Shown here piece by piece: positions 28,163 through 48,423 of a DNA stretch of 60,474 nt (the first letter of the stretch is position 1; each line of letters opens with the position of its first letter). Source of the DNA: Sulfurospirillaceae bacterium (GTDB taxonomy: Bacteria > Campylobacterota > Campylobacteria > Campylobacterales > Sulfurospirillaceae); assembly GCA_028684065.1 (NCBI GenBank), contig JAQUGO010000011.1:1-60474 (forward strand), given 5' to 3'. The notes below the pieces were generated by a model, which saw only the letters and a list, made by a program, of their open reading frames with translations, was not told the DNA's origin and ran no database searches. A program made the translations under genes and the position numbers.

Positions 28163-28380
28163 GGGGATAATTTACCCAATTTTTACTTAAAGGTATTTAG
28201 TAATAAAAAAGAAAGTAAAACGTGACCAAAACGTGGTTTTTGCTTTATATCATTTTAATGAAAGTTGCTATGTTTAAAAATAAGATTTCTTAAAGACGCG
28301 TCATAACGCTTTTAAGAGAAGTTTTGGATAGTGATGATGTTATTGAAAGAATACAATTAATCTCAAAAGGAGAAACGATA

Positions 28381-30592: not shown

Positions 30593-32544
30593 CACTTTTT
30601 AAACAAATTATTCTAATACTATCCATTTTTCAGACGATTATTTTTGGAGCTGTGATGTGGTTTAATTTTAATAGCTCCAAAGAGTATGTACAAGAGCAAG
30701 CATATACGGATGCTTTACATACCGCAAACTCGCTAGGGCTTTCTATCAGCTCTGTTGCTTCCTTGGACGATGTGTCTATGTCGGAGACAATGATTAATTC
30801 AGTTTTTGATAGTGGGTATTATGAAAAGATTATTCTTGAGGATATGAATCGAAGTATCCTTGTAGAAAAAGAACAAGAAGTAGTTTTGGCTGATGTCCCT
30901 GCGTGGTTTATACGGCATATCAAGATAGATTCTCCCGTGGCAACTTCACAGATAATGTTGGGGTGGACACCGTATGGTATCCTTAGTGTACAGCTTAACA
31001 GTGGACATGCTTACCGACAATTATGGACAATTTTTAAAGAAGTTTTGACGATTTTCATCGTGGTTTCCATTGTAGGGTTTTTCTGTTTACAATTTCTTCT
31101 AAGTCTTATTTTAAAACCATTAAAACGTGTACGAGAACAAGCAGAAGCTATTTTAGAGAGTGACTTTATCTTTCAAAAAGATATTCCTTTTACAACAGAA
31201 CTTAAAAACGTTGTCTTTGCTATGAATAGTATGATTAACAAAGTCAAAGAAATCTTTGAAAAAGAGATTGAAGCCGTTCGTAAATACCATGAACTTCTCT
31301 ATCAAGATACTGTGACAAAAATGTACAATCGTCGCTATTTTAATATTAAACTACAAGAGTATCTTGTGAGTGAAGAGACCAATGCACGAGGGGCACTTGT
31401 TCTAATTTCTTTAAATGATTTTGAAGGTTTAAAAAATACATTAGGGTATCAAAAAGGTGAAGCATTTATCAGAGCAATGGCCGATTCAATCAATCATACT
31501 ATTTGCCATAATCAAGAATATCTTAGTGCAAAATTGAGTGATACTGATTTTGCTATTTTAGTTCCCAGCACGCAAAGTGAAACCTTTATGTGCTTGTGTG
31601 AAGAGATTATTGTAGCGATAAAATCTAACCTTAATAATGTTGAATTAGATGAAAGAGAATATTTTATCAATATTGGTTATGCCCAATATTTTACAGCTAT
31701 AACAGCCAAAGAACTTTTTTCAAAAGCTGATTTTGCCTTAACAGCCTCTAAAGCAAAAGGCGCCTTTCATATTATGCGTTTTGATGAAAATGAGCAAGGT
31801 CATGTGATATTAGGGAAGGAAGCATGGGCTCAAGAATTACGCAGTGCTATGGATGAAAAGCGCTTCAAGCTTGCTTATCAAAATGCCGTTAATAGTGATG
31901 ATTATACTGATATATTTCACAGTGAACTTTTTTTGAGGTTGCAAGATTATAATGGCTATCTGCATAATGCGGGTCATTTTATGCCAATGGTGATGGAGCT
32001 TAAGATGGGCGCTTTAATGGATCATTATGTTATTGATCAAGCTATCCATGTTCTTCAAACGAATACCTTCACATGCAAAGGGCTTTGTATTAATTTGGGT
32101 AAAGATATCTTTTTGCAAAGCAACAGTTGGGCATGGCTTGAAGATAGTGTTACGAAGTTTAAAAAGATTGGAAATCAAAAGCTTTATTTTGAAGTACAAA
32201 TATCTTTTATTCCAAGTGAAATTTTGATTAAGTTTTCAAAATACCTCAGAAGTTTTGGCTATGGACTTGGACTTGATAACTTTACGATAAATAGTGAAAA
32301 CTTAATGTTAATGCAGTTGATTAATCCTTCGTATATCAAAGTACAAGCCTCTTCTTTACTTGATTTATTAGGTGATAATGCCTTAGAGATGCCAACGCGT
32401 TCTTTAGGGATTATTACAGATAGTATGGATATCAAAATTATTGCTGCTAATGTCGAAGATGAAGAGCAAAAAGAGCAGTTAAAAAATCTTGGTATTAACT
32501 ATATTCAAGGTAGTTTAGTGGCCAGACCTGAGATTATAGGATAA
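30589..32544 (+). CDS. lapD: LapD-like c-di-GMP receptor (degenerate GGDEF and EAL)
   Basis: A 651-residue membrane protein: helix near residues 5-25, periplasmic LapD/MoxY-type domain (about 26-145) ending in GWTPYGILSVQLNSGHAYR with the conserved Trp region that binds LapG, second helix (about 150-175), HAMP, then GGDEF-like (SDTDFAIL in place of GGDEF) and EAL-like domains (SELFLRL in place of EALLR). Both catalytic motifs are broken, so it should bind, not make or break, c-di-GMP. When bound it sequesters the LapG-type protease. It starts within the lapG stop and ends 3 bases before the exporter gene. Confidence 0.92.
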   Translation: MTLFKQIILILSIFQTIIFGAVMWFNFNSSKEYVQEQAYTDALHTANSLGLSISSVASLDDVSMSETMINSVFDSGYYEKIILEDMNRSILVEKEQEVVLADVPAWFIRHIKIDSPVATSQIMLGWTPYGILSVQLNSGHAYRQLWTIFKEVLTIFIVVSIVGFFCLQFLLSLILKPLKRVREQAEAILESDFIFQKDIPFTTELKNVVFAMNSMINKVKEIFEKEIEAVRKYHELLYQDTVTKMYNRRYFNIKLQEYLVSEETNARGALVLISLNDFEGLKNTLGYQKGEAFIRAMADSINHTICHNQEYLSAKLSDTDFAILVPSTQSETFMCLCEEIIVAIKSNLNNVELDEREYFINIGYAQYFTAITAKELFSKADFALTASKAKGAFHIMRFDENEQGHVILGKEAWAQELRSAMDEKRFKLAYQNAVNSDDYTDIFHSELFLRLQDYNGYLHNAGHFMPMVMELKMGALMDHYVIDQAIHVLQTNTFTCKGLCINLGKDIFLQSNSWAWLEDSVTKFKKIGNQKLYFEVQISFIPSEILIKFSKYLRSFGYGLGLDNFTINSENLMLMQLINPSYIKVQASSLLDLLGDNALEMPTRSLGIITDSMDIKIIAANVEDEEQKEQLKNLGINYIQGSLVARPEIIG

Positions 32545-32547
32545 AGT

Positions 32548-34707
32548 ATGCAAGAAGAATTGAAACACGATTTAAAACAGGACCCTTTGTTAAGTTGCTT
32601 GGTTATTTTTACTAAGTTACACAATACGCCTTACAGTGCTGAAGCCCTTACCGCGGGTTTGCCTATCGAAAAAGGCCTTAAAACCATAGAGCTTTTTTCA
32701 CTCAAGCAAGGTTCCAAATCACTTTTTACGCGTGCTGCGCAACACGCTGGATTTGCAAGTAGGCTTGCTAAGAAAGAACTTAAAGATATTTCACCTTTAG
32801 TATTACCGTGTATTTTAATTTTAAAGAAACAATCTGCGTGTATTTTGCTTGAGATTAACAAGGAAACCAAAAAAGCTAAAATCATTCATCCTGAGGTTGA
32901 AGGCGGAGAGAGTTGGGTAGACCTTGAGGTATTGGAAGAAGAGTATCTAGGGTTTTGTTTTTTACTTAAAAAAGAGTTCTCTGCTGAAAATGCAACAAAA
33001 AGTGTTCTTAAAAATGGGGATGAGCATTGGTTCTGGGGAACGATAAAGCGTTCTAAAAAAATCTATTTTGATGTTGTTATTGCATCTTTAGTGGTCAATG
33101 TCTTTGTCCTAGCGAGTCCTCTTTTTACAATGAACGTTTATGATAGAGTCATTCCCAATAATGCCATTGAAACCTTATGGGTACTCTCATTAGGTGTTAT
33201 TGTGATTTATGGTATTGATGTTTTGCTTAAGTTCACACGTTCATATTTCCTTGAAATTGCAGGTAAAAAAAGCGATATTATTATGTCCTCAATCATCTTT
33301 GAAAAAGTTATGGGCTTAACAATGGCATCACGACCTAAATCTGTTGGCTCTTTTGCAAGCAATTTACGCGACTTTGAATCGGTGCGTAATTTTCTTACGT
33401 CCACGACAATAGCCGCTATTATAGATTTGCCATTTGCCATTATTTTTCTTATGACAGTGCATTTTATCGCGGGACCTTTGGTGTTTATTCCAGTTGTTTT
33501 AATGATTATTATTTTGTTGTATACCTTTTCAATCAAAAAATCTTTGCAAGAGAGCATTGAAAGTACGTATGCTGCAACATCGGTGAAAAATGGTATTTTA
33601 ATCGAAAGCCTAAATGCCCTAGAAACACTTAAAATGCTCTCAGCTGGAGGGCAAGCACAATGGAAATGGGAAGAAGCAACGGGTGAAATCGCCAATAAAG
33701 GGTTGAGGTCAAAAATTTTATCCAATTCTATTGGAACGGTTACCTCTTTTTTAGTCCAGCTCGACACGGTTATTGTGGTTATTTTTGGTGTGTATATGAT
33801 ACAAAATATGGATTTAACGATGGGCGGGCTTATTGCTTCTATCATTTTATCTTCACGAGCCATTGCTCCCATGGGACAAGTGGCTTCTTTGGTTTCAAGC
33901 TATGAGCAAACAAAAACGGCATATAAAGCCATCAACGACATTATGAAACTCCCCGTTGAGCGACCAGAAGGGAAAAAATTTGTGCGCCGAGAAAAATTTA
34001 TGGGCAAAATAGAATTTCAAAATGTTTCATTTGCCTATCCAGGCGCTACCAATAATGCCTTAGAAAATGTCTCTTTTAAAATTGAAGCGGGTGAGAAAGT
34101 CGCTATTTTAGGGCGTAATGGTTCAGGTAAAACGACTATTGAAAAATTGATTTTAGGGCTTTACGTGCCAACAAGTGGTTCCGTTTTAATCGATGGTATC
34201 GATATCAATCAAATAGATCCCGTTGATTTACGTAAAAATATAGGTTATGTACCGCAAGATGTATTGCTTTTAAACGGTACCGTACGTGAAAATATAGTCT
34301 TTAGGGCACCCTATGTTGATGATGAAACCTTTTTACGGGCTAGTAAATTGGGGGGTGTTGATGAATTTATTGATTCGCATCCTTTAGGTGCTGATTTGCC
34401 TGTTATGGAGCGAGGTGATGGCATCTCGGGTGGACAACGCCAAAGTATTGCTATTGCGAGAGCCTTTTTGCTTGATTCTCCTATTATCCTTTTAGATGAA
34501 CCAACGAATTCTTTGGACAGTAGTTCCGAAACTAAAATAAAAACATTATTGAAAGCCAATATGGAAGGGAAAACAACCATTTTAGTAACACATAAATTGA
34601 CTCTTTTAGATTTAGTCGATAGGCTCATTGTTTTGGATCATTCACATGTCTTGATAGATGGGCAAAAAACAGAAGTCTTATCGAAGTTAAATGGTGTAAA
34701 ACGATGA
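32548..34707 (+). CDS. lapB: Type I secretion ABC transporter (LapB-like)
   Basis: A 719-residue exporter with three parts. First, an N-terminal C39-peptidase-like domain (about 1-140), where the catalytic Cys position is Pro (QDPLLSCLV), so it docks rather than cleaves the substrate. Second, six membrane helices (about 165-440). Third, an ATPase domain with Walker A GRNGSGKTT, signature ISGGQRQ and Walker B IILLDEPTNSLD. It powers export of RTX substrates, here the giant adhesin and probably the mini protein at 47159. It overlaps the membrane fusion gene by ATGA (34704-34707). Confidence 0.94.
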   Translation: MQEELKHDLKQDPLLSCLVIFTKLHNTPYSAEALTAGLPIEKGLKTIELFSLKQGSKSLFTRAAQHAGFASRLAKKELKDISPLVLPCILILKKQSACILLEINKETKKAKIIHPEVEGGESWVDLEVLEEEYLGFCFLLKKEFSAENATKSVLKNGDEHWFWGTIKRSKKIYFDVVIASLVVNVFVLASPLFTMNVYDRVIPNNAIETLWVLSLGVIVIYGIDVLLKFTRSYFLEIAGKKSDIIMSSIIFEKVMGLTMASRPKSVGSFASNLRDFESVRNFLTSTTIAAIIDLPFAIIFLMTVHFIAGPLVFIPVVLMIIILLYTFSIKKSLQESIESTYAATSVKNGILIESLNALETLKMLSAGGQAQWKWEEATGEIANKGLRSKILSNSIGTVTSFLVQLDTVIVVIFGVYMIQNMDLTMGGLIASIILSSRAIAPMGQVASLVSSYEQTKTAYKAINDIMKLPVERPEGKKFVRREKFMGKIEFQNVSFAYPGATNNALENVSFKIEAGEKVAILGRNGSGKTTIEKLILGLYVPTSGSVLIDGIDINQIDPVDLRKNIGYVPQDVLLLNGTVRENIVFRAPYVDDETFLRASKLGGVDEFIDSHPLGADLPVMERGDGISGGQRQSIAIARAFLLDSPIILLDEPTNSLDSSSETKIKTLLKANMEGKTTILVTHKLTLLDLVDRLIVLDHSHVLIDGQKTEVLSKLNGVKR

Positions 34708-36032
34708 GAAAACAACAATACGACGAACAAGATTACGCATACATGTCAAGCTTAAGTGAAGCTATTTTACAAAAAGCTCCGAGCGCATCACGTAAGCTTA
34801 TTTGGTTAGTGGGCACGGCTATTGCATGGCTTATTATTTGGGCGAGTATCGCAGATATAGACGAAATCACAAGAGGTCAAGGTAAAATAATTCCTTCACA
34901 ACAGTTACAGGTGGTACAAAACTTAGAAGGTGGAATTGTTTCTGAGATTTTAGTGAAAGAGGGCGATTTTGTTAAAAAAGACCAAGTTTTACTCAAAATT
35001 GATGATAAAAACTTTGCGAGTTCTTTTGGAGAGAGTAAGCTTCGCTATATTGAGCTCAAAGCAAAATCATTGCGATTAGAAGCTGAAGCGAATGATTTGC
35101 CATTTGAAATCTCTTTGAATGAAGATGAAGCGATGATAAAACAAATTGCGTATGAAAAAAGTTTTTATAACTCCAATAAAGAGCAGATTCAAAAAACATT
35201 GCAAATTTTTGAAGAACAAATTGGACAACGAGAAAATGAGCTTAAAGAGTTAGATGCCAAAGTAGCACAGTTACAACGAGGATATGACCTCGTTACTCAA
35301 GAAATGAAGATCATGAAGCCATTAACAGAAAAAGGTTTGGTTTCGGAGGTAGAGTTTTTACAGCTCAGTAGACAAGCCAATAGTATTAGAGGAGATTTGC
35401 AAGCTGCTAAGCTTTCAATTCCTAGGGTAAAATCAACGAAAGATGAAGTTCAGAAGAAAAAAAGTGAAGCAATATTAGGTTTTAAAAATAGAGCGAAAAA
35501 AGAGCTCAATGAAGCTGTGGCAGAGATGTCTAGGCTGAACGAAACACAAACAAGCTTAGAAGACAGAGTTAAACGAACATTGGTTCGAGCACCGATGGAT
35601 GGTACCATTAAACAATTACTGGTCAATACGGTTTCAGGTGTTGTGAAACCGGGCATGGATATTTTAGAAATTGTTCCAGCAGAGGATACCTTACTTGTAG
35701 AAGCTAAAGTGAAGCCTTCTGATGTAGCCTATTTATTGCCAGGTTTGAATGCTATGGTTAAATTTACAGCATATGATTTTTCCATTTATGGAGGACTCAA
35801 AGGTAAGCTCACATTAATTAGTGCAGATACCTTAACCAATGAAAAAGGCGAAAGTTACTATATCGTTCATATTAAAACGGATAAAAGTTTTTTAGGTGAT
35901 GAAAAAAAACCTCTTCCTATTATGGTCGGTATGACCGTTACAGTTGATATTTTAACAGGTAAAAAAACAGTGCTAGATTATCTTTTGAAACCTATTTTGA
36001 AAGCAAAACAAAATGCACTAAGGGAGCGTTAA
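34704..36032 (+). CDS. lapC: Type I secretion membrane fusion protein (LapC/HlyD-like)
   Basis: A 442-residue HlyD-family adaptor: one N-terminal helix (LIWLVGTAIAWLIIWASIAD), a biotinyl-lipoyl half-motif (VQNLEGGIVSEILVKEGDFV), a long coiled-coil (about 130-290) and the C-terminal beta domain with LVRAPMDGTIKQLLVNTVSG. It links the ABC exporter in the inner membrane to the TolC-like pore. It overlaps lapB and ends 2 bases before the regulator gene. Confidence 0.94.
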   Translation: MRKQQYDEQDYAYMSSLSEAILQKAPSASRKLIWLVGTAIAWLIIWASIADIDEITRGQGKIIPSQQLQVVQNLEGGIVSEILVKEGDFVKKDQVLLKIDDKNFASSFGESKLRYIELKAKSLRLEAEANDLPFEISLNEDEAMIKQIAYEKSFYNSNKEQIQKTLQIFEEQIGQRENELKELDAKVAQLQRGYDLVTQEMKIMKPLTEKGLVSEVEFLQLSRQANSIRGDLQAAKLSIPRVKSTKDEVQKKKSEAILGFKNRAKKELNEAVAEMSRLNETQTSLEDRVKRTLVRAPMDGTIKQLLVNTVSGVVKPGMDILEIVPAEDTLLVEAKVKPSDVAYLLPGLNAMVKFTAYDFSIYGGLKGKLTLISADTLTNEKGESYYIVHIKTDKSFLGDEKKPLPIMVGMTVTVDILTGKKTVLDYLLKPILKAKQNALRER

Positions 36033-36034
36033 TT

Positions 36035-36646
36035 ATGATTCTCTTATATTCACCACGATCTGAAGTTATCAATCATTGGATAGGTGCTTTTATGGATTTT
36101 AAAATGGCAATTTGTGAAAATGAAGATGAAATGTATTCAAAGATAGATACTCTTGATGAAGAAATTATTTTACTTTTAGAACATCGACAATATCATTCGA
36201 TAGAAGATTTTTTATCTCTTTTTCAAACCACTTATCCTGCTGTTAAAATTATGCTTTTTTCAAATAAACCTAGCTATGAGCAAGGTTACCAACTCTTACC
36301 ATTAGGGATAAAAGCATATGCAAATACCTATATGGCACATGTGCACCTTTGTGATGCTTTAAATGCTGTTCTAGCAGGCAATGTATGGTTGTATCCTGAA
36401 TTTATTCAAATGATGATACACTCACTTTCCACACCGCATCCTACCTTACACAGTAACGATGCGATGTCTTTGTACCATCTTAGTACGCGCGAAATGGAGA
36501 TTGCAACCTTGCTTAAAAAAGGACTTAGCAATAAAGAAATAGCGGAATTAACAGGTATCTCAGAACGAACAGTCAAAGCACACCTAAGCTCAGTATATGA
36601 AAAAACAGGGATAAAAGACCGTCTCGCACTTGCGCTCGCACTCTAA
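36035..36646 (+). CDS. LuxR-type regulator with degenerate receiver domain
   Basis: A 203-residue protein with a receiver-like N-terminal domain (about 1-120) in which the phospho-acceptor position in the third strand appears to be Glu (IILLLEHRQYHS) instead of Asp. A LuxR helix-turn-helix follows (about 145-200: LSTREMEIATLLKKGLSNKE, GISERTVKAHLSSVY). It is the last gene before the adhesin, 82 bases upstream of it, and probably controls it; a dyad adjoins the adhesin promoter. The Glu may fix an active-like state, so another signal may control it. Confidence 0.85.
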   Translation: MILLYSPRSEVINHWIGAFMDFKMAICENEDEMYSKIDTLDEEIILLLEHRQYHSIEDFLSLFQTTYPAVKIMLFSNKPSYEQGYQLLPLGIKAYANTYMAHVHLCDALNAVLAGNVWLYPEFIQMMIHSLSTPHPTLHSNDAMSLYHLSTREMEIATLLKKGLSNKEIAELTGISERTVKAHLSSVYEKTGIKDRLALALAL

Positions 36647-36654
36647 GCTTTATA

Positions 36655-36670
36655 TTGTACTTTAGTACAA
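36655..36670 (+). promoter_or_regulatory. Dyad adjoining the adhesin promoter
   Basis: TTGTACTTTAGTACAA is a 7 bp inverted repeat with a two-base centre, ending exactly where the adhesin -35 (TTGTCA, 36671) begins. This placement suits an activator site, possibly for the LuxR-type regulator just upstream. Confidence 0.5.
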
Positions 36671-36728: not shown

Positions 36729-39700
36729 ATGGCACACGCAGTTGGAACAATCAAAAGTATTACCGGTCTAGTAATGGCTAAAAATTCACAAGGTGAAGAG
36801 AGAATTTTAAAAGTTGGCGATAGAGTTAATATTGAGGATACCATAAGTACCGTGGGTGCAGGCTCCCATGCTACGCTGGCTTTGGCTAGTGGAAAAGAAC
36901 TTATCATAGGAGGCAATGATACACTGTTTTTAGATAAAAGTGTTTATGCCTCAGAGAGTTTTGGCGATGATGCTATTGTATCCTCCGATACCATTCAACA
37001 CGTTGCTGCTACCAGTGATGTAGAGGCTATGCAACAAGCTCTTTTACGAGGAGAAGATGTCACTAACCTTGAAGCAACAGCTGCAGGAGAGGGTGGCGGA
37101 ATACCATCAACTTTAGGGACTTTTGGTTCAGCACAGTATTTGGAAGGTGGTAACGAAAGTAATGTAAGTTCTAGCCTTAGAAATCTTGGAGGCGGAGTAG
37201 GTGATACAACCCTTTTTGTGGCAAGTAATGCCGCAGATGTTAATGATGCCCCAATTGCTATTGATGATAGTATTGGAGGTGTGAATGAAGGCAGTGAGGT
37301 TCCTGTAAGTTATACGTATGAAAATGACGCTGCTACGATTGATGTTCTTAATAATGATTATGACTTAGATGCTAATGATATTTTGAGTATCAATAGCTTT
37401 GATACGACAACCGTATTTTTAAAAGATGGCGTTCCCACCACGGGTGGAACTGTCAGTGAAGTTGATGGTAAATTAGTCTTTGAACCGGGTAATGATTTTG
37501 ATTATCTAGCGGTAGGTGAGACACAAGTAGTGACCTTCACTTATGATATCATTGATGATTCTGGTGCAGCCAATGCTATTAGTAATCGTGCTACGGTTTC
37601 TATCACCATCACTGGAACGAATGACCAACCTGTTGTGAGTGATATCAATATCTCTGGAACACAAAGTAGCTGGTTACTTGTGGCTGGTGGTGACTCTGGT
37701 GATTCATCAAGTCTTAAAGATATCAATACATTTGTCGGTGGCGATACAGTCGTTCAAGATTTATTTACGGCAAATGACGGTAATCATCCAACAGATGGTA
37801 CCGCACTTAAACTTTCTGTTTCTACGGAAGCGGGTGAAGCTGTTTCATTTAATTGGACATTCTATGATGCTGAGGCAGAAGGTCAAAATGACTACAATGA
37901 TTTTTCATTTGTCATTGTTGATGGTGAGCGTATTGATTTATTGGCCAACTCTTTTATGGCTGGAAGTGAAAACAGTGGCATCTTTACCTATACTTTTACA
38001 AATGCTGGAACCCATGAGATTCTTTTTGGTGTCATGAACGATGACGATACCTCCGTCGACCCAGCACTTCGTGTAACACATGTTTCAGGCGGTGAAATCA
38101 TCGATGTTCATAGCATCGGTACTATTCAAGAAACAACCTTTGATGCACTAACTCTTTTTGAAACCAATGATACGAGTGCGGTTGATACGAATGAAGATGG
38201 TATTGCTTATAACGATGAAGCGATGAATGTTCTCGCAGGAACACTTATCGCAAATGATATGGATGCCAGTGATACTCATCTTTTCCGCCTTGTAGATATC
38301 AATACGGGAGAAGAAATTCCTAATGAAGAAGGACCTAGCGAAGCATTTTACATGCAACTTGCGCCAACAGATTACGTTTCTGTTCAATACATTGATGCTA
38401 ACAATCCTGACCTTGATGCCAATAGCACAGTCACTATTTCTGTTGCATCGAGTGATGTAGATGTGAGCAAGTTAGATATTCAAAGCATTACACTTCTCAA
38501 TAATGATGCTGGTGATAGCCACAGTGACTTTGAGCTTCGAGGCGATTTTGGTGCACTAGGTGCAGGAGAGAGTGCCACCATAACTTTTAAATATTATGCT
38601 GATGATACCCATGGTTTCGATGGTACTGATGGGTTAAATGAAAGTTCTATTAGCGAGCCAAAAACGGTTACAATGACGATTACTGGAACCAATGATCAGC
38701 CGGTTGTTAGTAATATTAATGCCAATGCAACTGTAACTGGAGGTGAAGAGCACACTGATTTAGATACATTATCCAATACCAATGTTCACTGGTCACCGTT
38801 TGGAGAAACAAATACCGCTTATTACGCGCAATCATTTGTAGCAACGGATACTGATTTATCCAATGTGAAATTTGCTTTAGCCTATCAATATGGTGGCGAT
38901 AATGTTGAATTTCGTGTCTTAGTGACAGAACTTATTGAAGATAGTACAGGATTAAGACCTGGACAAATATTGTTTGAGAGTGGCGATTTATCTTTACCTA
39001 GTGATAGTAGTGGTGACGTACCATTCTCTGTAGATATTGATTTGTCTTCAGAGTTAATCGTGGGCCACAAATATGCTATTGTTTTTGACTCTTATGTTTT
39101 ATTTGATGGTTCTGCTGGCACAGCTGAGTTTGCTTCTCAAACGGGTAATCCAGATCCAAATGGTGAGTTCTTCTATTATAACACGGATGGTGGTGATAGA
39201 GCATCTCATTTTGCAAGTGCAGACTGGAGTGAAACAGGTAGTACTGGTTATGATGCCGGTTTGATTCTTTCTTATGCAAGCGGTGAAGCCGTTGTTTTTG
39301 AGAGCCATGATGCAACAGATGTCATAGGTGTAGATGATACAAAAGAAGATGTATTAACACTCTTTACCGGAAATCTGGCGACTGCCATAGATGACGATGT
39401 TAACGACACGCCTACTTATCAAATAGTAGATAATAGTACAACAGTCAATAATGCTTTAATTACAGAACCTGTGAACGTGATTGTCAATAGTGACGGAACT
39501 TATAGTGTAGAAGGAAACTTTAACGCTCTTGCAGCAGGTGAAACGGTTACGATTACATTCCAATACGTCGCAAATGACGGTAGAGGTTTTGATGGAAGTG
39601 ATGGACTTAATGAAAGTTCTATCAGTGAACCAGCCACTGTCACACTAACGATTACAGGAACTAATGATCAACCAGTCGTAGAAAATGTAACTATTTATCA

Positions 39701-42700
39701 AAATGAAGCTCTTGATGGAACCAATACCTTTGAAGGTACCTTAGTTGCCAGTGATGATGATACTACAGATAACCATTATTTTTATGGCGTAATGGATGAA
39801 GGTGAATCAATAGCCTACACAGTAGATTCTCCAGCAGAAGTTACGGTTGAATCAATCGTTGTTAATACCAATGGAACCTATAGTATCGAAGGTGATTTTA
39901 ATGCTCTTGCTATAGGGGAAAGTGCAACAGTTACTTTCCAATACTATGCAGTAGATACTAGCTTAACGCAAAACAATGGTGAATCTAATGTTTCTGAATA
40001 CAAAACCGTAACACTAACGATTACAGGAACCAATGATCAACCGGTAGTTGAAAATGTAACAACTACGGTTACGGAAGCTTCTTTGATAGATACTGACCAT
40101 CATGAAGATGTAAGATTTGAAGGACAATTACATGTAAGCGACGCAGATACTTCCGATAGCCATACCTTTAGTATTGAAAATAATAGCTTCCATGTCAGTA
40201 TCACAACAGTAGATGCACAAGGTAGTGAATCAACGACAGAACTTCCATCGTGGGCAGTAAATTTACTTATTTGGTCACACCAATTGAGTGTTGATCTTAA
40301 TGCTGCTACGGGTGAGTACAGTGTTTCAAGCACCTTATTTAATACTTTGGGTGCAAATCAAAGCATGAGTGTTTCATTTGATTACTCTGCTAATGATGGT
40401 AGAGGATTTGATGGAGACAGTATTAATGAAAATTCATTAAGTAATATTGCTACAGCAACTTTAGTTGTCGAAGGAACCAATGACCAACCAGTTGCATTCC
40501 CAAGTAGCTCGATACAATGGGAACAGTTCTTGAGTGACGTCCCAAGTGAAGATGCTTTATTTAGAGGAATATTACCGCATGCTACAGATGAAGATGCCAG
40601 TGATCAGCTTAGTTATTTTGGTGTGGATGCCGATGAAAATGGTTTAATTGATGTACAAACCTTTAGTCCTGTACAAATTTCAGATGGTATAACACCTGTC
40701 GTTGATCCAACACAAACCGTGGTGAGTATAGATGAAAATGGGTTTTACACTGTCAGCAATCCAACCTTTGATGCACTAGCCGCAGGCGAGAGTGCGACTG
40801 TGACATTCCAATACTATGTCGATGATAATTCTGGTGCTATTGCAGGAGCTAATCCTCATGAATCAACACAAAGTGAGCCTCAAACAGTCACCATTACGAT
40901 ATTGGGAACCAATGACAAGCCAATTGTGAGTGATGTCAGTGATGCTCAAAATGAAGTGTTAGATGGACACAATACCTTTACGGGAACACTCGTTGCAAGT
41001 GATGCAGATGTTAACGATAACCATACGTTTGCACTTAAATCACACTCTATTGTTTCGGAAAATCCATTGGTAACAGATCTTCATGTTACGCTTAATTCGA
41101 ATGGTACCTACACTGTCAGTGGAGACTTTAATGCCCTTGCTGTAGGCGAGAGTGCAGAAGTGAGCTTCCAATACAGAGCTGACGATCATTCAGGCTCTCC
41201 ATTATGGGATGAATCACGTTATTCTGATTATGAAACCGTTACTCTCACCATTACGGGAACGAATGACCAACCTGTAGTTAGTGATGTAATTGTTTCTCAA
41301 AATGAAGTCCTTGATGGACTTAATATCTTTACTGGAACATTGTCAGTCACAGATAGTGACACGAGTGATGGACATACCTTTAATGCTGTTGAAAATAGCT
41401 TACATGTAGAGGCTCCAGTAGCAATAGGAACACCAACATTGACATTGGATGGCACAACAGGAGAATACAGTATTAGCGGTGACTTTAACGCACTAGCAGC
41501 AGGAGAGAGTGCAACAATCACCTTCCAATATTATGCAGTTGATGATAGTGGAGTAGGAGGTGGTGATGCAAATAATGAAAGCTCTATTTCAGAGATGAAA
41601 ACTGTAACATTAACCATTACAGGAACCAATGACCAACCAGTTGTAAGCGATATCAATGCCAATAGTGAAGGAATATCTGGTGAAGCAGTCTATAGCAATG
41701 AAACAGATATGCGAATTCCAGAAAGTGGAACAACAGGGACTATTTATTCTACGATAGAAGTTGCCGATGGTGCTACTATCACGGATTTAAACGTTCAAAT
41801 TGACTTGGCACATTCATATGACCAAGACCTTATTATCACATTAATTGCACCTGATGGTACTGAAATATTGTTATCGAATCGTCATGGTGGAGGTGGCAAT
41901 GACTTTATAGATACACTCTTTGATGATGAAGCTAGTACATCAATTGGTTCAGCTTATGCTCCATTTAATGGTGTCTTTAGACCTGATGGTGATTTATCCG
42001 TGCTTGATGGCATGGATATTCAAGGAACGTGGACATTGCGCATTGAAGATGTTGCTCATTTAGACTCAGGTACACTTGATTATTGGGCACTTCATTTTAC
42101 AGCTGATGGTAGTGAATTGGTTTATGAAACTTATGATAGCATAGATGTAATAGGCGTAGACGATACTCAAGATGATGCGCTTACAACTTTTACAGGCAAC
42201 CTAGCAACAGCAGTTGATGATGATACCAGTGATAATCACACCTACGCATTGTATGGAACACCTGAAGGTATTAATGTCAACGTCTTAACCAATGGACAAT
42301 ATACGGTTACAGGAGATTTTAATTCATTAGCCGTAGGTGAGACACGAACTGTTACCTTCCAATATGTAGCCATAGATGATAGTGTAACACAAGTCAATGG
42401 TGAGTCTAATACATCTGAACCAGCTACTGTAACACTTACCATTACTGGTACTAATGACCAACCAGTGGTTGAGAATGTCACTGATGCGCAAGACGAAGCG
42501 CTTAATGGTCTTAATACCTTCACTGGGATATTGGCAGCCAGTGATGAAGATACCAGTGATAATCATACCTTCAATATCAATGGAACACCAGCGGTCGATA
42601 ATCCTTTAGTTACGGGATTAGATGTTAGTATAGAGGGAAGTACCTATACCGTAAGCGGGGACTTTAACGCTTTAGCGGCAGGCGAGAGCGCCATTGTTAC

Positions 42701-45700
42701 CTTCCAATATTATGCGGTTGATGATAGTGGTGTCGGTACAGGTGATGCGCATAATGAAAGTTCTATCTCTGAAATCAAAACAGTGACCTTAACGGTAACA
42801 GGCACTAATGATGCTCCTATTTTTGTAACAGATGACAATACTCCACAAGAGTCTTATAGCTTCAGTTATGATGAAAATAGTGCTCCAAATACCATTATTG
42901 GTACTGTGTATGCTACCGATATTGACCATGGTAATGTAGTTTCTTATTCTATCCAGAGTGGTAATGATGCAGGTTACTTTGCTATTGATTCTGCAACAGG
43001 TGATATTAGCCTTACAGAATTAGGAGCGAGTGCTTATACTAATGATTTTGAAGCACTTAGCAATGTTCATAATCTTGTTGTAGGTGCCAGTGATAGTATC
43101 GTAACAACTTTCATTGATGTAACGTTGAGCGAAAATAATGTGAATGATATCCCAGATGCCATTGATGACTATGGTGTCTCAGGTATTCAAGCTCAATACT
43201 ATGGCTACCAACAAGGAACAGATGGTCCAAATATAACTAATATTGCTCAGATTAGAGCTTTTATAGCAGACCATGCCCCAGATGCGACATTTACGCCAAC
43301 TTTGTTAGATTATAACTATGGTACAGGTGATTTGGCAAAAGGTCATCATCTCCAAAATTTCCTTGGAGTCGATGCCGCTTCGCTTAGTACAGATCCGAGC
43401 AATGCAACGGATGGTATTATCTATATGAATGGGTATGTGAATATGGATGCAGGTACCTATGAATTTAAGGTTTACGCCGATGATGGCTATACAATTTTGA
43501 TAGATGGACAAGCGGTTGCGACGTTTGATAATATTCAAAGTCCAGCAACACATTTTTACACACCTTTCACGATTGAAGCGAGTGGCTTGCACCATGTCGA
43601 GATAATTTATTGGGATCAAGAAGGGGAATATGTCTTTAAAGCTGAAATTAGTAATGATGGTGGAAATACCTATGAAGTGTTTGATATGAGTGGCGGTAGT
43701 CAGTCATTAGTGACACCTGAAGATACTGCTATTACGCTTACAGCAGCAACATTACTGGCTAATGATACAGACCAAGATGGTGATACTCTAAGTATCATCA
43801 GTGTTCAAAATGCGCAACACGGAACCGTTGAGCTTAATCTTGATGGTACGGTTACCTTTACACCTTCCCCAGATTATTATGGCGATGCAACATTTGATTA
43901 CACCATTAGTGATGGCAATGGAGGGGAAGACACGGCAACGGTTCATTTAGTCGTTACGCCAGTCAATGATGCACCAGATGCTGTGGATGATGGTGCAGAA
44001 GAACCGTTTACAACCGATGAGGGTATGATGCTTGCTAATATCAATGTCCTTGGCAATGATACTGACCCAGAGAATGATCCTTTACATGTAACGGATGCAA
44101 GCAGTGCAAATGGTACCGTTACAATTAATCCAGATGGTACGCTCAACTTTACACCAACAGATGGATTTAGTGGTGATACAACGATTAGCTATACGATTAG
44201 TGATGGCAATGGTGGAGAAGATACGGCAACGGTTTTCATTACGGTTAATGCCGTTGACCATGATCCTACTATCGTTGTAGATACTGGAAACATAGAGAAT
44301 GCTAATGATGGTGTTTCTGAAGCAGGTATCGCAACGATTGGTTCACATGCGGGAGATGGCTCAGAAATCGCTACGGGTACGTTTACTATTGGTGACCCTG
44401 ATGGTTTAGGGGATATTCAATCTATTACACTAGCTGGAACTACGTTGACAATAGGTTCTGGTATTGGTGAATTCTCTGATTTTGTTGCGATGATAGGAGA
44501 AGCGGTCAATACAACCAATGGAACCGTTGAAATTACAAGCTATAACAATGGCGTTTTTGGTTATACCTATACGCTAACATCTGCCACTAATGGAGCAGAT
44601 ACAACTGATAGCTTTGATGTTAGTGTCTCCGATGGCAACACCAGTGCGACAGAAACGGTAATCATTGATATTACTGATGATGCACCAATTGCTTACGATA
44701 ATACTATTGCTTTAGGAGAAGGCTCAGTTTCAGGTGCTGATGGAACCGCAAATCTTCTATTGATACTAGACTTTTCTCGTAGTATGGCAGGGGATAATTT
44801 AATTGCAATGAAAAGTGCCGTTAGTAGTCTGATAGCAGCTTATGATAACGTTGGGGACTTTAACTTAAAAATAGTTACATTTGGTACCGATTCTGGAACG
44901 TCTGCCGTAACTGGAATCTTTACAACAGTGCAAAGTGTTAACGATTGGCTAACCACTGTAGATGATAGTGATTTGACTACTGGAACCAATTATGATACGG
45001 CTATTAGTACAGCAATGAGTGCATGGACAGCTGCCAATATAGTGGGTGCAGATGCAAGCAACTCGATTGCTTATTTTATCTCTGATGGAGAACCTACTTA
45101 TACACACGCTTTAAATACAACGGAGCAAAATACTTGGGAAGATTATGTGGATGCGCATTTTTCAAAAGCCATTGCGATTGGTATGGGGGCAGGAGCTCCT
45201 AACGATAGTGATCTTCAAGCTATTGCCTATACGCCAAATGGAGATGATGAGATTTATATCGTATCAAATCTAAGTGATCTTACAGATACCTTGGTCAGTA
45301 CCGTTATCGTTCCTGATGTTGTTGAAGGTAATGTTGTCACACAAGATGGTGTACTCAACATCATAGATATACCAGGTGCAGATGATTGGGCTGACCCTAA
45401 ATTGGTATCGGTAGAGTATGATGGCACTATCCATAATTTTGTAACTGAAGGTGTAACATCTTTCACTATTGTGACAAGTGCAGGAACCGTTACTATCGAC
45501 AATCAAGGCAATTATAGCTTTACATCGTTGACAGACGTAGCCAATGATGTAACAGACCATATTACCTATACTGTGGCCGATAGTGATGGTTCAACTGCGC
45601 ATGCTGATTTAATTCTAACGACACTAGATAGTGTTCCAACAGCTGTTGTTGATACAAATACGGCATCCGAAGGTTACTATACAGCAGGAACTGAAATTTT

Positions 45701-47036
45701 AATTCCTGTGACGACTGTGGTATCAGCAAGTTGGGATCCTGCAACCATTATAGATAAAGGCCCAGGTAGTAGCACCAGTGGTTGGGGCAATATAAACGAT
45801 AATACCACATCTGATATTGTTGCTATCGTTGCGGATGTTAGTCATTCCACAACGGTAAGTTTTACCTTGGGTGATACAAATAGAAATGGTACTGCTACCT
45901 TATACAAACAAGTTAATGGTCCAGACACAGTCATTTCTACAGTAAATTTCACGAGTAGCAGTGATAATCAAACGATTAACTTTGCTAATGCCATTACAAG
46001 TAATGGTAGTTATTATGTTTTATTTACACGTGAAAACCAACCAGGAGCGGAAAAGGTTAATATTTCAAAAGTGACGTATAACACATATACGTATACACCG
46101 GCATCAACAACAACGAATTATGTTGCTCAGGCTGAGATGGAATGGGTCGCTGCTACTATAGCTATTGGCAATGTATTGAACAATGATATAGCAGGAGCAG
46201 ATGGCGGTTTAAGTGTTACATCGGTTCAAGGTGTTAATGGCATTGATGTTGCCGTCATTGCAGGCGGTGTTGATATTGCAGGTGCTAATGGGGTTTTACA
46301 TATAGATGAAACAGGTGCTTACACGTATACCCCTAATGCTGAAGATATGACAAACACAGCATTAAGCACTCCGGATGTCTTTAGTTACACGATAACAGAT
46401 GCTGATGGTAGTGTGTCACTATCAACATTAACGATTAATGTAACTGACCATGATTATAGTACAGATGCCACTATTATTGGTGGAACAGATGGCAATGATA
46501 CATTGAATGGAACAGATGGCAATGATGCCCTTTACGGTGGTGCAGGTGACGATCATTTATATGGTGGTGCTGGCAACGATGTTCTTCATGGCGGAGACGG
46601 TAATGACTACTTAGATGGTGGAGCTGGTAAAGATGCTCTATACGGTGATGCTGGCAATGATACCTTGGTTTACGATGCCCTAGATAGCATCATAGACGGT
46701 GGAAATGGTATTGATACTTTATTGTTCCAAGCGAATGGTTTGGTTGACTTTAATAACATTGTTGGTGGTACAATACAAAGTATTGAGGTGCTTGATTTAA
46801 CACAAGCAGATGTAACGCTTGCCAATTTAAATCCTGATGATGTCTTAGATATGACAGGTGATTCTAATACGATCTTAAAAATAGTAGGAGACAGTGCAGA
46901 TAGCATTTCAAGCAGTGTACCTGCAACATGGACTGCGACAACAGGTGCTGAGGCAGGTTTTGAGCGTTATGAGGGAATTGCAGATGGGCATACGATTAAA
47001 ATAGATATTCATCAAGATATCCAAACAGACTTCTAA
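36729..47036 (+). CDS. Giant RTX adhesin of the LapA type (retention module, VCBS repeats, P-domain, PA14, vWA, RTX)
   Basis: A 3435-residue type I secreted adhesin. Residues 1-115 form the retention module (HAVGTIKSITGLVMAKN, GEERILKVGDRVNIEDTIST) that plugs the outer membrane pore; TAAG at 117-120 followed by EGGG is the LapG cleavage site. Residues about 170-2035 contain ten VCBS/Ig-like units, each ending TGTNDQPVV or similar. Insertions include a proprotein-convertase P-domain (about 1655-1797, ending GTLDYWALHF). Then come a cadherin-like unit (about 2040-2140), a PA14 sugar-binding domain (about 2152-2317), two tandem-95 repeats, a von Willebrand A domain (about 2672-2857, MIDAS DFSRS), RTX calcium repeats (about 3250-3315) and a secretion signal. 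Confidence 0.95.
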   Translation: MAHAVGTIKSITGLVMAKNSQGEERILKVGDRVNIEDTISTVGAGSHATLALASGKELIIGGNDTLFLDKSVYASESFGDDAIVSSDTIQHVAATSDVEAMQQALLRGEDVTNLEATAAGEGGGIPSTLGTFGSAQYLEGGNESNVSSSLRNLGGGVGDTTLFVASNAADVNDAPIAIDDSIGGVNEGSEVPVSYTYENDAATIDVLNNDYDLDANDILSINSFDTTTVFLKDGVPTTGGTVSEVDGKLVFEPGNDFDYLAVGETQVVTFTYDIIDDSGAANAISNRATVSITITGTNDQPVVSDINISGTQSSWLLVAGGDSGDSSSLKDINTFVGGDTVVQDLFTANDGNHPTDGTALKLSVSTEAGEAVSFNWTFYDAEAEGQNDYNDFSFVIVDGERIDLLANSFMAGSENSGIFTYTFTNAGTHEILFGVMNDDDTSVDPALRVTHVSGGEIIDVHSIGTIQETTFDALTLFETNDTSAVDTNEDGIAYNDEAMNVLAGTLIANDMDASDTHLFRLVDINTGEEIPNEEGPSEAFYMQLAPTDYVSVQYIDANNPDLDANSTVTISVASSDVDVSKLDIQSITLLNNDAGDSHSDFELRGDFGALGAGESATITFKYYADDTHGFDGTDGLNESSISEPKTVTMTITGTNDQPVVSNINANATVTGGEEHTDLDTLSNTNVHWSPFGETNTAYYAQSFVATDTDLSNVKFALAYQYGGDNVEFRVLVTELIEDSTGLRPGQILFESGDLSLPSDSSGDVPFSVDIDLSSELIVGHKYAIVFDSYVLFDGSAGTAEFASQTGNPDPNGEFFYYNTDGGDRASHFASADWSETGSTGYDAGLILSYASGEAVVFESHDATDVIGVDDTKEDVLTLFTGNLATAIDDDVNDTPTYQIVDNSTTVNNALITEPVNVIVNSDGTYSVEGNFNALAAGETVTITFQYVANDGRGFDGSDGLNESSISEPATVTLTITGTNDQPVVENVTIYQNEALDGTNTFEGTLVASDDDTTDNHYFYGVMDEGESIAYTVDSPAEVTVESIVVNTNGTYSIEGDFNALAIGESATVTFQYYAVDTSLTQNNGESNVSEYKTVTLTITGTNDQPVVENVTTTVTEASLIDTDHHEDVRFEGQLHVSDADTSDSHTFSIENNSFHVSITTVDAQGSESTTELPSWAVNLLIWSHQLSVDLNAATGEYSVSSTLFNTLGANQSMSVSFDYSANDGRGFDGDSINENSLSNIATATLVVEGTNDQPVAFPSSSIQWEQFLSDVPSEDALFRGILPHATDEDASDQLSYFGVDADENGLIDVQTFSPVQISDGITPVVDPTQTVVSIDENGFYTVSNPTFDALAAGESATVTFQYYVDDNSGAIAGANPHESTQSEPQTVTITILGTNDKPIVSDVSDAQNEVLDGHNTFTGTLVASDADVNDNHTFALKSHSIVSENPLVTDLHVTLNSNGTYTVSGDFNALAVGESAEVSFQYRADDHSGSPLWDESRYSDYETVTLTITGTNDQPVVSDVIVSQNEVLDGLNIFTGTLSVTDSDTSDGHTFNAVENSLHVEAPVAIGTPTLTLDGTTGEYSISGDFNALAAGESATITFQYYAVDDSGVGGGDANNESSISEMKTVTLTITGTNDQPVVSDINANSEGISGEAVYSNETDMRIPESGTTGTIYSTIEVADGATITDLNVQIDLAHSYDQDLIITLIAPDGTEILLSNRHGGGGNDFIDTLFDDEASTSIGSAYAPFNGVFRPDGDLSVLDGMDIQGTWTLRIEDVAHLDSGTLDYWALHFTADGSELVYETYDSIDVIGVDDTQDDALTTFTGNLATAVDDDTSDNHTYALYGTPEGINVNVLTNGQYTVTGDFNSLAVGETRTVTFQYVAIDDSVTQVNGESNTSEPATVTLTITGTNDQPVVENVTDAQDEALNGLNTFTGILAASDEDTSDNHTFNINGTPAVDNPLVTGLDVSIEGSTYTVSGDFNALAAGESAIVTFQYYAVDDSGVGTGDAHNESSISEIKTVTLTVTGTNDAPIFVTDDNTPQESYSFSYDENSAPNTIIGTVYATDIDHGNVVSYSIQSGNDAGYFAIDSATGDISLTELGASAYTNDFEALSNVHNLVVGASDSIVTTFIDVTLSENNVNDIPDAIDDYGVSGIQAQYYGYQQGTDGPNITNIAQIRAFIADHAPDATFTPTLLDYNYGTGDLAKGHHLQNFLGVDAASLSTDPSNATDGIIYMNGYVNMDAGTYEFKVYADDGYTILIDGQAVATFDNIQSPATHFYTPFTIEASGLHHVEIIYWDQEGEYVFKAEISNDGGNTYEVFDMSGGSQSLVTPEDTAITLTAATLLANDTDQDGDTLSIISVQNAQHGTVELNLDGTVTFTPSPDYYGDATFDYTISDGNGGEDTATVHLVVTPVNDAPDAVDDGAEEPFTTDEGMMLANINVLGNDTDPENDPLHVTDASSANGTVTINPDGTLNFTPTDGFSGDTTISYTISDGNGGEDTATVFITVNAVDHDPTIVVDTGNIENANDGVSEAGIATIGSHAGDGSEIATGTFTIGDPDGLGDIQSITLAGTTLTIGSGIGEFSDFVAMIGEAVNTTNGTVEITSYNNGVFGYTYTLTSATNGADTTDSFDVSVSDGNTSATETVIIDITDDAPIAYDNTIALGEGSVSGADGTANLLLILDFSRSMAGDNLIAMKSAVSSLIAAYDNVGDFNLKIVTFGTDSGTSAVTGIFTTVQSVNDWLTTVDDSDLTTGTNYDTAISTAMSAWTAANIVGADASNSIAYFISDGEPTYTHALNTTEQNTWEDYVDAHFSKAIAIGMGAGAPNDSDLQAIAYTPNGDDEIYIVSNLSDLTDTLVSTVIVPDVVEGNVVTQDGVLNIIDIPGADDWADPKLVSVEYDGTIHNFVTEGVTSFTIVTSAGTVTIDNQGNYSFTSLTDVANDVTDHITYTVADSDGSTAHADLILTTLDSVPTAVVDTNTASEGYYTAGTEILIPVTTVVSASWDPATIIDKGPGSSTSGWGNINDNTTSDIVAIVADVSHSTTVSFTLGDTNRNGTATLYKQVNGPDTVISTVNFTSSSDNQTINFANAITSNGSYYVLFTRENQPGAEKVNISKVTYNTYTYTPASTTTNYVAQAEMEWVAATIAIGNVLNNDIAGADGGLSVTSVQGVNGIDVAVIAGGVDIAGANGVLHIDETGAYTYTPNAEDMTNTALSTPDVFSYTITDADGSVSLSTLTINVTDHDYSTDATIIGGTDGNDTLNGTDGNDALYGGAGDDHLYGGAGNDVLHGGDGNDYLDGGAGKDALYGDAGNDTLVYDALDSIIDGGNGIDTLLFQANGLVDFNNIVGGTIQSIEVLDLTQADVTLANLNPDDVLDMTGDSNTILKIVGDSADSISSSVPATWTATTGAEAGFERYEGIADGHTIKIDIHQDIQTDF

Positions 47037-47055: not shown

Positions 47056-47079
47056 TCAAGGTTTACGTGTAAACCTTGA
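47056..47079 (+). repeat. Perfect 11 bp palindrome downstream of the adhesin
   Basis: TCAAGGTTTAC and GTAAACCTTGA pair perfectly around a two-base centre. It shares its last base with the terminator that follows, so the two hairpins form a pair. Confidence 0.7.
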
Positions 47080-47107
47080 ATAGGGAGGAAAATTTTTCCT
47101 CCCTATT
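47079..47107 (+). terminator. Strong terminator after the adhesin gene
   Basis: AATAGGGAGGAAAA and TTTTCCTCCCTATT form a perfect 14 bp stem with a one-base loop, followed by T-rich sequence. It isolates the adhesin from the mini-substrate gene, which therefore needs its own promoter (TATGAT at 47121). Confidence 0.85.
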
Positions 47108-47158
47108 CTCTATTTTTTGCTATGATTTCTTTTTAAATTCTTTTTTGGAGTCACAGAA

Positions 47159-47770
47159 GTGCATGCAATAGGAACAGTTAAAAGTATCAATGGTGCAGTT
47201 TTTAGTGAAAATACAGTTGGTGAAGAGACTTTTTTAAAAGTAGGCGATGTCGTCAACAGTGAAGATACTATTGCTACAAAAGGGGAAAATTCCCACGCTG
47301 TTATCCTCTTGTTGGATGGACAAGAGCTGACTTTAGGAAGTGATGATTCTCTTCTTTTAGACCACAGTGTTTATAATGCTAAAAGTTTTGGAGATGAGGC
47401 GATTATTTCGAGTCAAACAGCCTATGATATCTTTATAGAAAAAGGGGGACTTTCTTTTTTTGCCGATGATCCCTCTGTCAACCTAGATGCTCTTATTGCC
47501 TTAAATAGTAGTGATATAGAGAGTAGCAGCACCCAAAGTCAAGCTATTAATCCTTTGGATATTATTAGTTTGCCAGAGTCTGAAACTATTATTAAAATAG
47601 AAGGTTTTGATTCTGATATGAGTGCAAACTATAATCCGTCAGAATGGGCACCTATGGCAGATCAAAGTAATGTGGATACCGGTTATATCCGTTATGAATA
47701 CTTTGGAGAGCATAACAGTAAACACTATATCGATTTGAAAGATACACTGATTCTTTCCGATTTTGTATGA
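47159..47770 (+). CDS. Mini type I secretion substrate: retention module plus secretion-signal tail only
   Basis: A 203-residue protein from GTG 47159 (GGAG 9 bases upstream). Residues 1-90 are clearly homologous to the adhesin's retention module (HAIGTVKSINGAVFSENTVG, LKVGDVVNSEDTIATKGENS, DHSVYNAKSFGDEAIISS). The tail (about 165-203: NVDTGYIRYEYFGEHNSKHY then YIDLKDTLILSDFV) resembles the adhesin's C-terminal signal (GFERYEGIADGHTIKIDIHQ). Between them are about 70 residues with no repeats and no TAAG or other di-alanine site. It looks like an exporter substrate that LapG cannot cut. It overlaps the second LapG-like gene by ATGA. No described family with this architecture is known to me; plug, decoy or competitor roles are inferred. 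Confidence 0.85.
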   Translation: MHAIGTVKSINGAVFSENTVGEETFLKVGDVVNSEDTIATKGENSHAVILLLDGQELTLGSDDSLLLDHSVYNAKSFGDEAIISSQTAYDIFIEKGGLSFFADDPSVNLDALIALNSSDIESSSTQSQAINPLDIISLPESETIIKIEGFDSDMSANYNPSEWAPMADQSNVDTGYIRYEYFGEHNSKHYIDLKDTLILSDFV

Positions 47771-48423
47771 GAGCCAACAGAGCTGTTATTATCGCACTTT
47801 TTATAGGCTTACATGTAAGCCTATTTGGAAAAGAGTTTAGCCTCTCCCCTTCTTTTTTTAACTCCTTACAAACCGAAAAATCTAAAGCCATTTTTAAAGA
47901 CTATGAACGCTTTATGAATGAAACAGCGCCCAAGCCTTTACATATCAAGCTTGAGGCAGTGAATTTTTATATGAATGCTTTTGTAGGCTCCTATGATGAA
48001 CAGACGTATCAAACAGAAGATTTTTGGGCAACACGTGCTGAATTTTTAAGCGCAGGGCAGGGAGATTGTGAGGATTATACAATTGCTAAATATGAGACAT
48101 TGAAAGACTTTGGAATAAAGCCTAAACAAATGGGTGTTTGCATCGTTAAAGAGCGTTCTTCTCAGTACTATCATATGGTTTTACTATTTTGGCAAGAAAC
48201 TAAAGTAACACCTATGGTACTGGATAATCTTAGCTTTAAAGTGCTTCCTTTGGATGCTAGAGTTGATTTGTCAGTAGAACAGTGCATGAATGAAGAGGGC
48301 TATTTTAAGTTAGATACACACAATCAGCCGCAATCTTTTCAATCACATTTAAAAATAAAAACCTACGAAAGAGTCAAACAGCAAAGGCTACAAGAGCATA
48401 TCTGGCAAAAATCTAAACCCTAG
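47767..48423 (+). CDS. LapG-like periplasmic cysteine protease, copy 2
   Basis: A 218-residue BTLCP peptidase with a signal peptide (VIIALFIGLHVSLFG) and an intact triad: Cys101 in GQGDCEDYTIAKY, His136 in YYHMVLLFW and Asp153 in MVLDNLS; DFWATRAEFLSAG matches the copy at 29948. It is translationally coupled to the mini-substrate gene (ATGA, 47767-47770), not to a LapD-like receptor. It may process the large adhesin under different control, or act on or be bound by the mini protein. Confidence 0.92.
   Translation: MRANRAVIIALFIGLHVSLFGKEFSLSPSFFNSLQTEKSKAIFKDYERFMNETAPKPLHIKLEAVNFYMNAFVGSYDEQTYQTEDFWATRAEFLSAGQGDCEDYTIAKYETLKDFGIKPKQMGVCIVKERSSQYYHMVLLFWQETKVTPMVLDNLSFKVLPLDARVDLSVEQCMNEEGYFKLDTHNQPQSFQSHLKIKTYERVKQQRLQEHIWQKSKP

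What the first reader, a model, noticed from the sequence alone, without database searches (positions are those of the whole stretch)
47159..48423. Mini retention-module protein without cleavage site, coupled to its own LapG-like protease
Seen: a 203-residue protein repeats the adhesin's N-terminal retention module and a secretion-signal-like tail but has no adhesive repeats and no TAAG site, and it is ATGA-coupled to a second complete LapG-like protease. Known: in Lap systems the retention module holds the adhesin in the TolC-like pore until LapG cuts at a di-alanine site. Inferred: an exported, uncleavable mini-substrate could plug the pore, compete with the large adhesin, or titrate LapG. 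I know of no described system with this pair.
Basis: partly seen in the sequence, partly recalled or inferred. Interest (0 to 1): 0.88.

Follow-up and report, generated by a model that had tools for sequence, protein, structure and literature searches.

The report
Adhesin cut down to its anchor
Next to a giant surface adhesin sits a small protein that keeps only the adhesin's two ends, the part that jams in the export pore and the export signal, and lacks the site where the release protease cuts; similar mini-anchors recur in related bacteria, mostly under the adhesins' own control sequence, so they may block or compete for the pore.

Summary
Observation confirmed. ORF 47159-47770 (203 aa) is a retention module (1-90, 56% identical to the neighbouring adhesin's N-terminus) joined to the adhesin-type C-terminal module (about 97-203). 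It lacks the targeting helix, TAAG site and repeats, and overlaps by ATGA a second LapG with an intact C-H-D triad. It is not unique: seven more proteins of 191-231 aa with this build occur in seven other Campylobacterota genomes (three in the window's family, four in another). None of the eight has [T/A/P]AAG; nearly all adhesin retention modules do. The four of the other family share one gene slot, show dN/dS of 0.2-0.39, and sit in genomes with a complete Lap export operon. Seven of the eight (not the window's) carry the palindrome GTACnnnnGTAC 60-75 bp upstream, as most adhesins do (47 of 80 retention-module genes, 3 of 957 other ORFs). LapG2 is a separate LapG subfamily which, in relatives, overlaps full adhesins. 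The window pair therefore looks like a LapG2-coupled adhesin that lost its middle. Best reading: uncleavable mini-anchors that occupy the adhesin's pore. For the window copy alone, a shrunken adhesin kept as leader for LapG2 remains a serious rival. New variant of the Lap system.

The parts
47159..47770 (+). mini retention protein (203 aa, GTG start): retention module about 47159-47428, C-terminal T1SS-type module about 47447-47767, no targeting helix, no TAAG
47767..48423 (+). LapG2, second BTLCP/LapG protease (218 aa), signal-peptide-like N-terminus, intact C-H-D and DCED; ATGA overlap with the mini
47113..47126 (+). promoter-like TTTTTTG-C-TATGAT upstream of the mini (expected 0.01 in the window by chance, 2 found)
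   Evidence: promoter type from general knowledge of Campylobacter promoters
47078..47108 (+). terminator-like hairpin (14 pairs, then T run) between adhesin and mini
36729..47036 (+). large RTX adhesin (3435 aa) with retention module, Cadherin/VCBS-like repeats, VWA, RTX and C-terminal module
37077..37088 (+). TAAG cleavage motif of the large adhesin (residues 117-120)
36655..36670 (.). palindrome TTGTACTTTAGTACAA, candidate operator 72 bp upstream of the adhesin start; absent upstream of the mini
36035..36646 (+). LuxR/CsgD-like regulator (203 aa), candidate reader of the palindrome
34704..36032 (+). LapC/HlyD-type adaptor (442 aa)
32548..34707 (+). LapB/LssB-type T1SS ABC transporter (719 aa)
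30589..32544 (+). LapD-like c-di-GMP receptor (651 aa)
29948..30592 (+). LapG1, canonical LapG next to LapD (214 aa)
28324..29706 (+). TolC/LapE-type outer-membrane factor (460 aa ORF; true start probably near 28381)

Best explanation
The mini is an exported, uncleavable 'anchor-only' relative of Lap-type adhesins. Shown: it keeps the retention module and the C-terminal export module and has lost everything between, including the protease site; proteins of the same build recur in other Campylobacterota. Inferred: the C-terminal module enters the LapB-LapC-TolC exporter, the retention module folds in the periplasm and stalls the chain in the outer-membrane pore as it does for the large adhesin, and because LapG has no site to cut, the pore stays occupied. 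It would thus limit how many pores display the large adhesin or keep pores closed, and its exposed retention module may also engage LapG. In the window the mini arose in, or replaced, the slot of an adhesin that was translationally coupled to LapG2, and LapG2 survives as an active-looking second protease.
For: Same two-module build in 8 genomes of 2 families. No TAAG in any of the 8, against nearly all adhesin retention modules. Purifying selection in the other family's four: dN/dS 0.20 for G185-G334, retention module 0.11. Seven of eight carry the adhesins' palindrome at the adhesins' spacing; in the four genomes of the other family 12 of the 13 genome sites lie just before a retention-module gene, one of them the mini each time. 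Those four genomes hold a complete TolC-LapG-LapD-LapB-LapC-LuxR operon. The mini lies immediately after LapB-LapC-LuxR in G027 and G028. The retention module matches PDB 5IX9. LapG cleaves between the retention module and the membrane-spanning part at [T/A/P]AAG, and a retention domain adds to protease docking (PMC13090378).
Against: No export, plugging or protease assay exists. The window copy lacks the shared operator and evolves fast: its C-terminal module has pN 0.48-0.53 at pS 0.64-0.74, against pN 0.18-0.35 between adhesins, so its tail may be under little constraint. The stretch between its two modules is only about 10-15 residues, too short to span a TolC pore (about 140 Angstrom, general knowledge) unless the C-terminal module stays unfolded. 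The structure model was poor (mean pLDDT 49).
Confidence: 0.42

Rival explanations
1. Shrunken second adhesin kept as a leader. An adhesin coupled to LapG2 lost its middle in frame; the 203-codon remnant has no function as a protein, but its translation is needed to start LapG2, which has no ribosome site of its own (ATGA coupling).
For: LapG2 overlaps the stop codon of a full adhesin in G004, G006, G019 and G020. In one tree the mini's retention module groups with those adhesins (100/95). No Shine-Dalgarno-like sequence before the LapG2 ATG. Fast tail and missing operator.
Against: Minis occur without any adjacent LapG in G009, G028 and the four genomes of the other family, and in the latter are under purifying selection. 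The retention module of the window copy still shows pN well below pS (0.31 against 0.73). A second tree with fewer rows groups the mini with its own genome's adhesin instead (91/70), so the origin is unsettled.
Confidence: 0.3
2. LapG decoy. The mini's retention module binds LapG1 or LapG2 without being cut and so protects the large adhesin from release.
For: In Desulfovibrio a retention domain docks on the LapG-like protease and raises cleavage (PMC13090378). G334 and G027 minis keep a targeting-helix-like stretch with the cut site replaced (VTTE, SDDL; 0 and 8 of 2000 shuffles as good).
Against: The window mini has no recognisable targeting helix (355 and 1693 of 2000 shuffles as good); retention-domain docking is described as a distinct feature of the Desulfovibrio system, not of gammaproteobacterial LapG.
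Confidence: 0.15
3. LapG2 has another specificity and cuts the mini at a site that is not TAAG, making a releasable plug.
For: LapG2 proteins form a separate supported clade (100/99) that includes the protease 1.5 kb from the mini of G027; all keep the catalytic residues.
Against: In relatives LapG2 is coupled to adhesins with ordinary TAAG sites, so there is no sign of a changed site; no conserved motif is shared by the minis' linkers.
Confidence: 0.1

Closest known systems
LapA-type two-step T1SS adhesins with N-terminal retention module (LapA, MapA, CraA/FrhA, MpIBP; NF033682)
   Same: retention module at the N-terminus, adhesin-type C-terminal export module, encoded with LapB-LapC-TolC, LapG and LapD
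   Different: no targeting helix, no [T/A/P]AAG, no spacer, no repeats; about 200 aa instead of thousands
LapG / BTLCP periplasmic protease (PF06035, NF045674)
   Same: LapG2 has the family fold by sequence, C-H-D triad, DCED motif, signal-peptide-like start
   Different: separate clade from the LapD-linked LapG1 of the same genomes; not next to lapD but coupled to a T1SS substrate gene; below the NCBIfam LapG equivalog cut-off
Dvh system of Desulfovibrio (DvhG, DvhA, DVU1545; PMC13090378)
   Same: retention domain, LapG-like protease and c-di-GMP receptor; shows that a retention domain can dock on the protease
   Different: its substrates are full, cleavable adhesins; no mini substrate was found described

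Membership tests
LapA-type retention-module adhesin | N-terminal retention module | tested here: met
   E=3e-26 to own adhesin; 5IX9 E=2.4e-6; NF033682 E=1.2e-7 but 32 bits, below its cut-off of 50
LapA-type retention-module adhesin | LapG site [T/A/P]AAG after the module | tested here: not met
LapA-type retention-module adhesin | adhesive or extender repeats and RTX motifs | tested here: not met
   no Pfam match; sequence
LapA-type retention-module adhesin | C-terminal T1SS module | tested here: met
   similarity to adhesin C-termini; export itself not testable here
LapA-type retention-module adhesin | encoded with a LapB-LapC-TolC exporter | tested here: met
   for the other family the operon is elsewhere in the genome
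LapG / Peptidase_C93 (LapG2) | profile match above curated cut-off | tested here: met
   PF06035 47.7 bits against 27; NF045674 equivalog 95 bits against 320 is not met
LapG / Peptidase_C93 (LapG2) | C-H-D catalytic triad and Ca-binding DCED motif | tested here: met
   alignment
LapG / Peptidase_C93 (LapG2) | cleaves a retention-module protein; held by LapD | not testable with these tools
   needs biochemistry

The most novel reading that the evidence does not exclude
Campylobacterota use a dedicated class of co-regulated, uncleavable mini retention proteins as plugs or competitors of the Lap adhesin pore, a third control layer beside LapD and LapG, and in the window's lineage one is paired with a divergent LapG2 that clears it.
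Probability: 0.25. Interest if true: 0.85.

Novelty: new variant of a known kind. Interest (0 to 1): 0.6.

Why it matters
If the minis are exported and retained, bacteria carry natural versions of an uncleavable adhesin anchor, and surface adhesin would be set by pore occupancy as well as by c-di-GMP and LapG. They would be small natural probes of how a retention module jams a type I exporter. The shared GTACnnnnGTAC palindrome gives a simple way to find the whole adhesin regulon in this phylum.

Tried and rejected
Naming the organisms: two scans of genome contigs with mini queries found nothing, so genomes stay as handles; Campylobacter for f11/g15 is a guess from genome size and kinship. Short proteins of 139-143 aa that matched weakly (G068, G400) start with a signal peptide, end in a GIRGTxF motif and were set aside as FecR-like, not minis. 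G320 (169 aa) and G263 (227 aa) are marginal (no operator, poor tail) and not counted. Short frames with TAAG (G191, G466) are broken or incomplete adhesins. One origin for the G000 and G009 minis is weakly rejected (AU p=0.025), but long branches make this uncertain. That minis in general keep the targeting helix was tested and holds only for G334 (weakly G185) and G027. Minis outside Campylobacterota were not searched.

Full report
What is there. The window holds a Lap-type system in one direction: TolC-like (28324-29706), LapG1 (29948-30592), LapD (30589-32544), LapB (32548-34707), LapC (34704-36032), a LuxR/CsgD-like regulator (36035-36646) and a 3435-aa RTX adhesin (36729-47036). After a strong terminator hairpin (47078-47108; fold z = -5.3) come the 203-aa mini (47159-47770) and LapG2 (47767-48423), joined by ATGA. 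A promoter-like TTTTTTGCTATGAT (47113-47126) precedes the mini; two copies exist in the window where 0.01 is expected. The reading as a Campylobacterota-type promoter is from general knowledge.

Anatomy of the mini. Residues 2-91 are 56% identical to the adhesin's N-terminus (E=3e-26) and match PDB 5IX9, which I take from general knowledge to be the retention region of the Marinomonas ice-binding adhesin. From about residue 97 the sequence follows the adhesin-type C-terminal module (GGLSFFADDPSVNLD...INPLDIISLPESETIIKI...) that in full adhesins comes right after the RTX repeats. So the protein is the two ends of an adhesin joined directly. The targeting helix and TAAG (the latter at residues 117-120 in the big adhesin) are missing. 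Published work places the cut at [T/A/P]AAG after a targeting helix (PMC13090378).

Recurrence. Searches of 150 relatives, 397 genomes of the phylum, the whole family (44 genomes) and family f11 (153 genomes) gave seven more minis with intact frames. In the window's family: G009 (191 aa, after the adhesin, no LapG2), G027 (208 aa, directly after LapB-LapC-LuxR; a LapG2-clade protease 1.5 kb on) and G028 (198 aa, between LuxR and the start of a full adhesin). In f11: G185, G279, G334 and G466 (226, 231, 224, 219 aa), all between a HerA-like ATPase gene and a glycerol-3-phosphate acyltransferase gene, far from the exporter (the neighbours were identified by profile in G185 and by matching gene order and length in the others). 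None of the eight has [T/A/P]AAG, while nearly all adhesin-sized retention-module ORFs do; exceptions include TATG in G033 and TALG in G028. G185 and G334 minis give dN/dS 0.20 (retention module 0.11); the other f11 pairs give 0.24-0.39 with synonymous sites near saturation. All four f11 genomes hold a complete TolC-LapG-LapD-LapB-LapC-LuxR operon without a neighbouring adhesin.

Shared control sequence. The palindrome GTACnnnnGTAC lies within 150 bp (mostly 70-80 bp) upstream of 47 of 80 retention-module genes but only 3 of 957 other ORFs (rows include related species, so they are not independent). Seven of eight minis have it. In the four f11 genomes the longer form TTGTACYWWRGTACAA (one mismatch allowed) occurs 3 to 4 times per genome, 13 in all; 12 lie just before a retention-module gene, including each mini, and the reversed control pattern gave none there. 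A LuxR homologue is present in 17 of 18 genomes searched and missing only in G008, where the remaining adhesin fragment lies next to IstA/IstB-type transposase genes. That this protein reads the palindrome is inference. The window's own mini lacks it; its adhesin has it at 36655-36670.

LapG2. The proteases that follow adhesins or minis form one clade (100/99) apart from the LapD-linked LapG1. In G004, G006, G019, G020 and G008 LapG2 overlaps the adhesin stop codon (TAATG; in G008 that of a truncated adhesin); in G025 it follows the adhesin after what looks like an insertion. The window's mini therefore occupies the slot of a LapG2-coupled adhesin. One tree puts its retention module with those adhesins (100/95); a smaller tree puts it with its own adhesin (91/70), so the parent gene is not settled. 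The G000 and G009 minis look like separate reductions (AU p=0.025), with the caution that both are long branches.

How it probably works. Shown: module content, absence of the cut site, recurrence, selection in f11, shared upstream palindrome in seven of eight. Inferred: export by LapBC-TolC, stalling at the retention module, and pore occupancy that LapG cannot relieve. The stretch between modules is about 50 residues in f11, enough to span a TolC-like pore, but only about 10-15 in the window copy, which would need an unfolded tail to do the same (distances from general knowledge). The window copy also evolves fast in its tail (pN 0.48-0.53 at pS 0.64-0.74). So for the family a function is likely; for the window copy a non-functional leader for LapG2 is a serious rival.

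Known or new. Searches of the open-access library for retention modules, LapG, small T1SS substrates and Campylobacterota returned only large adhesins and no mini; subscription papers are not covered. I rate it a new variant of the Lap system rather than a new kind: all modules are known, the combination and its recurrence are not described in what I could search.

Noticed in passing
window 36655-36670; L031 16996, L114 9933, L115 10632, L116 8991, L171 6146 and others: Palindrome TTGTAC-YWWR-GTACAA upstream of retention-module genes in two families of Campylobacterota: a candidate operator defining an adhesin regulon.
   Followed up: partly
L041 5339-5974, L049 17628-18263, L126 8138-8773, L034 14632-15270, L123 9906-10541, L179 3709-4467, window 47767-48423: A second LapG subfamily (LapG2) translationally coupled to adhesins instead of linked to lapD.
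   Followed up: partly
L123 6073-9906 (G008): Adhesin left as a C-terminal fragment beside IstA/IstB-like transposase genes, LapG2 still intact, no LuxR match in the genome.
   Followed up: no
L179 3281-3709 (G025): About 430 bp between the adhesin and LapG2 look like an insertion into the 5' end of LapG2, with a P-loop/zeta-toxin-like fragment.
   Followed up: no
L121 9428-9851 (G185), L119 9787-14804 (G191), L034 15270-19920 (G020): Adhesin genes split into two or more frames near the N-terminus or middle, perhaps phase variation or assembly errors.
   Followed up: no
L117 9055-9738 (G263): A 227-aa protein with a weak retention-module match stands between a CCG-domain gene and an aldehyde dehydrogenase gene; in g15 the Lap operon follows a similar CCG-type gene. 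G263 has no LapG match.
   Followed up: no
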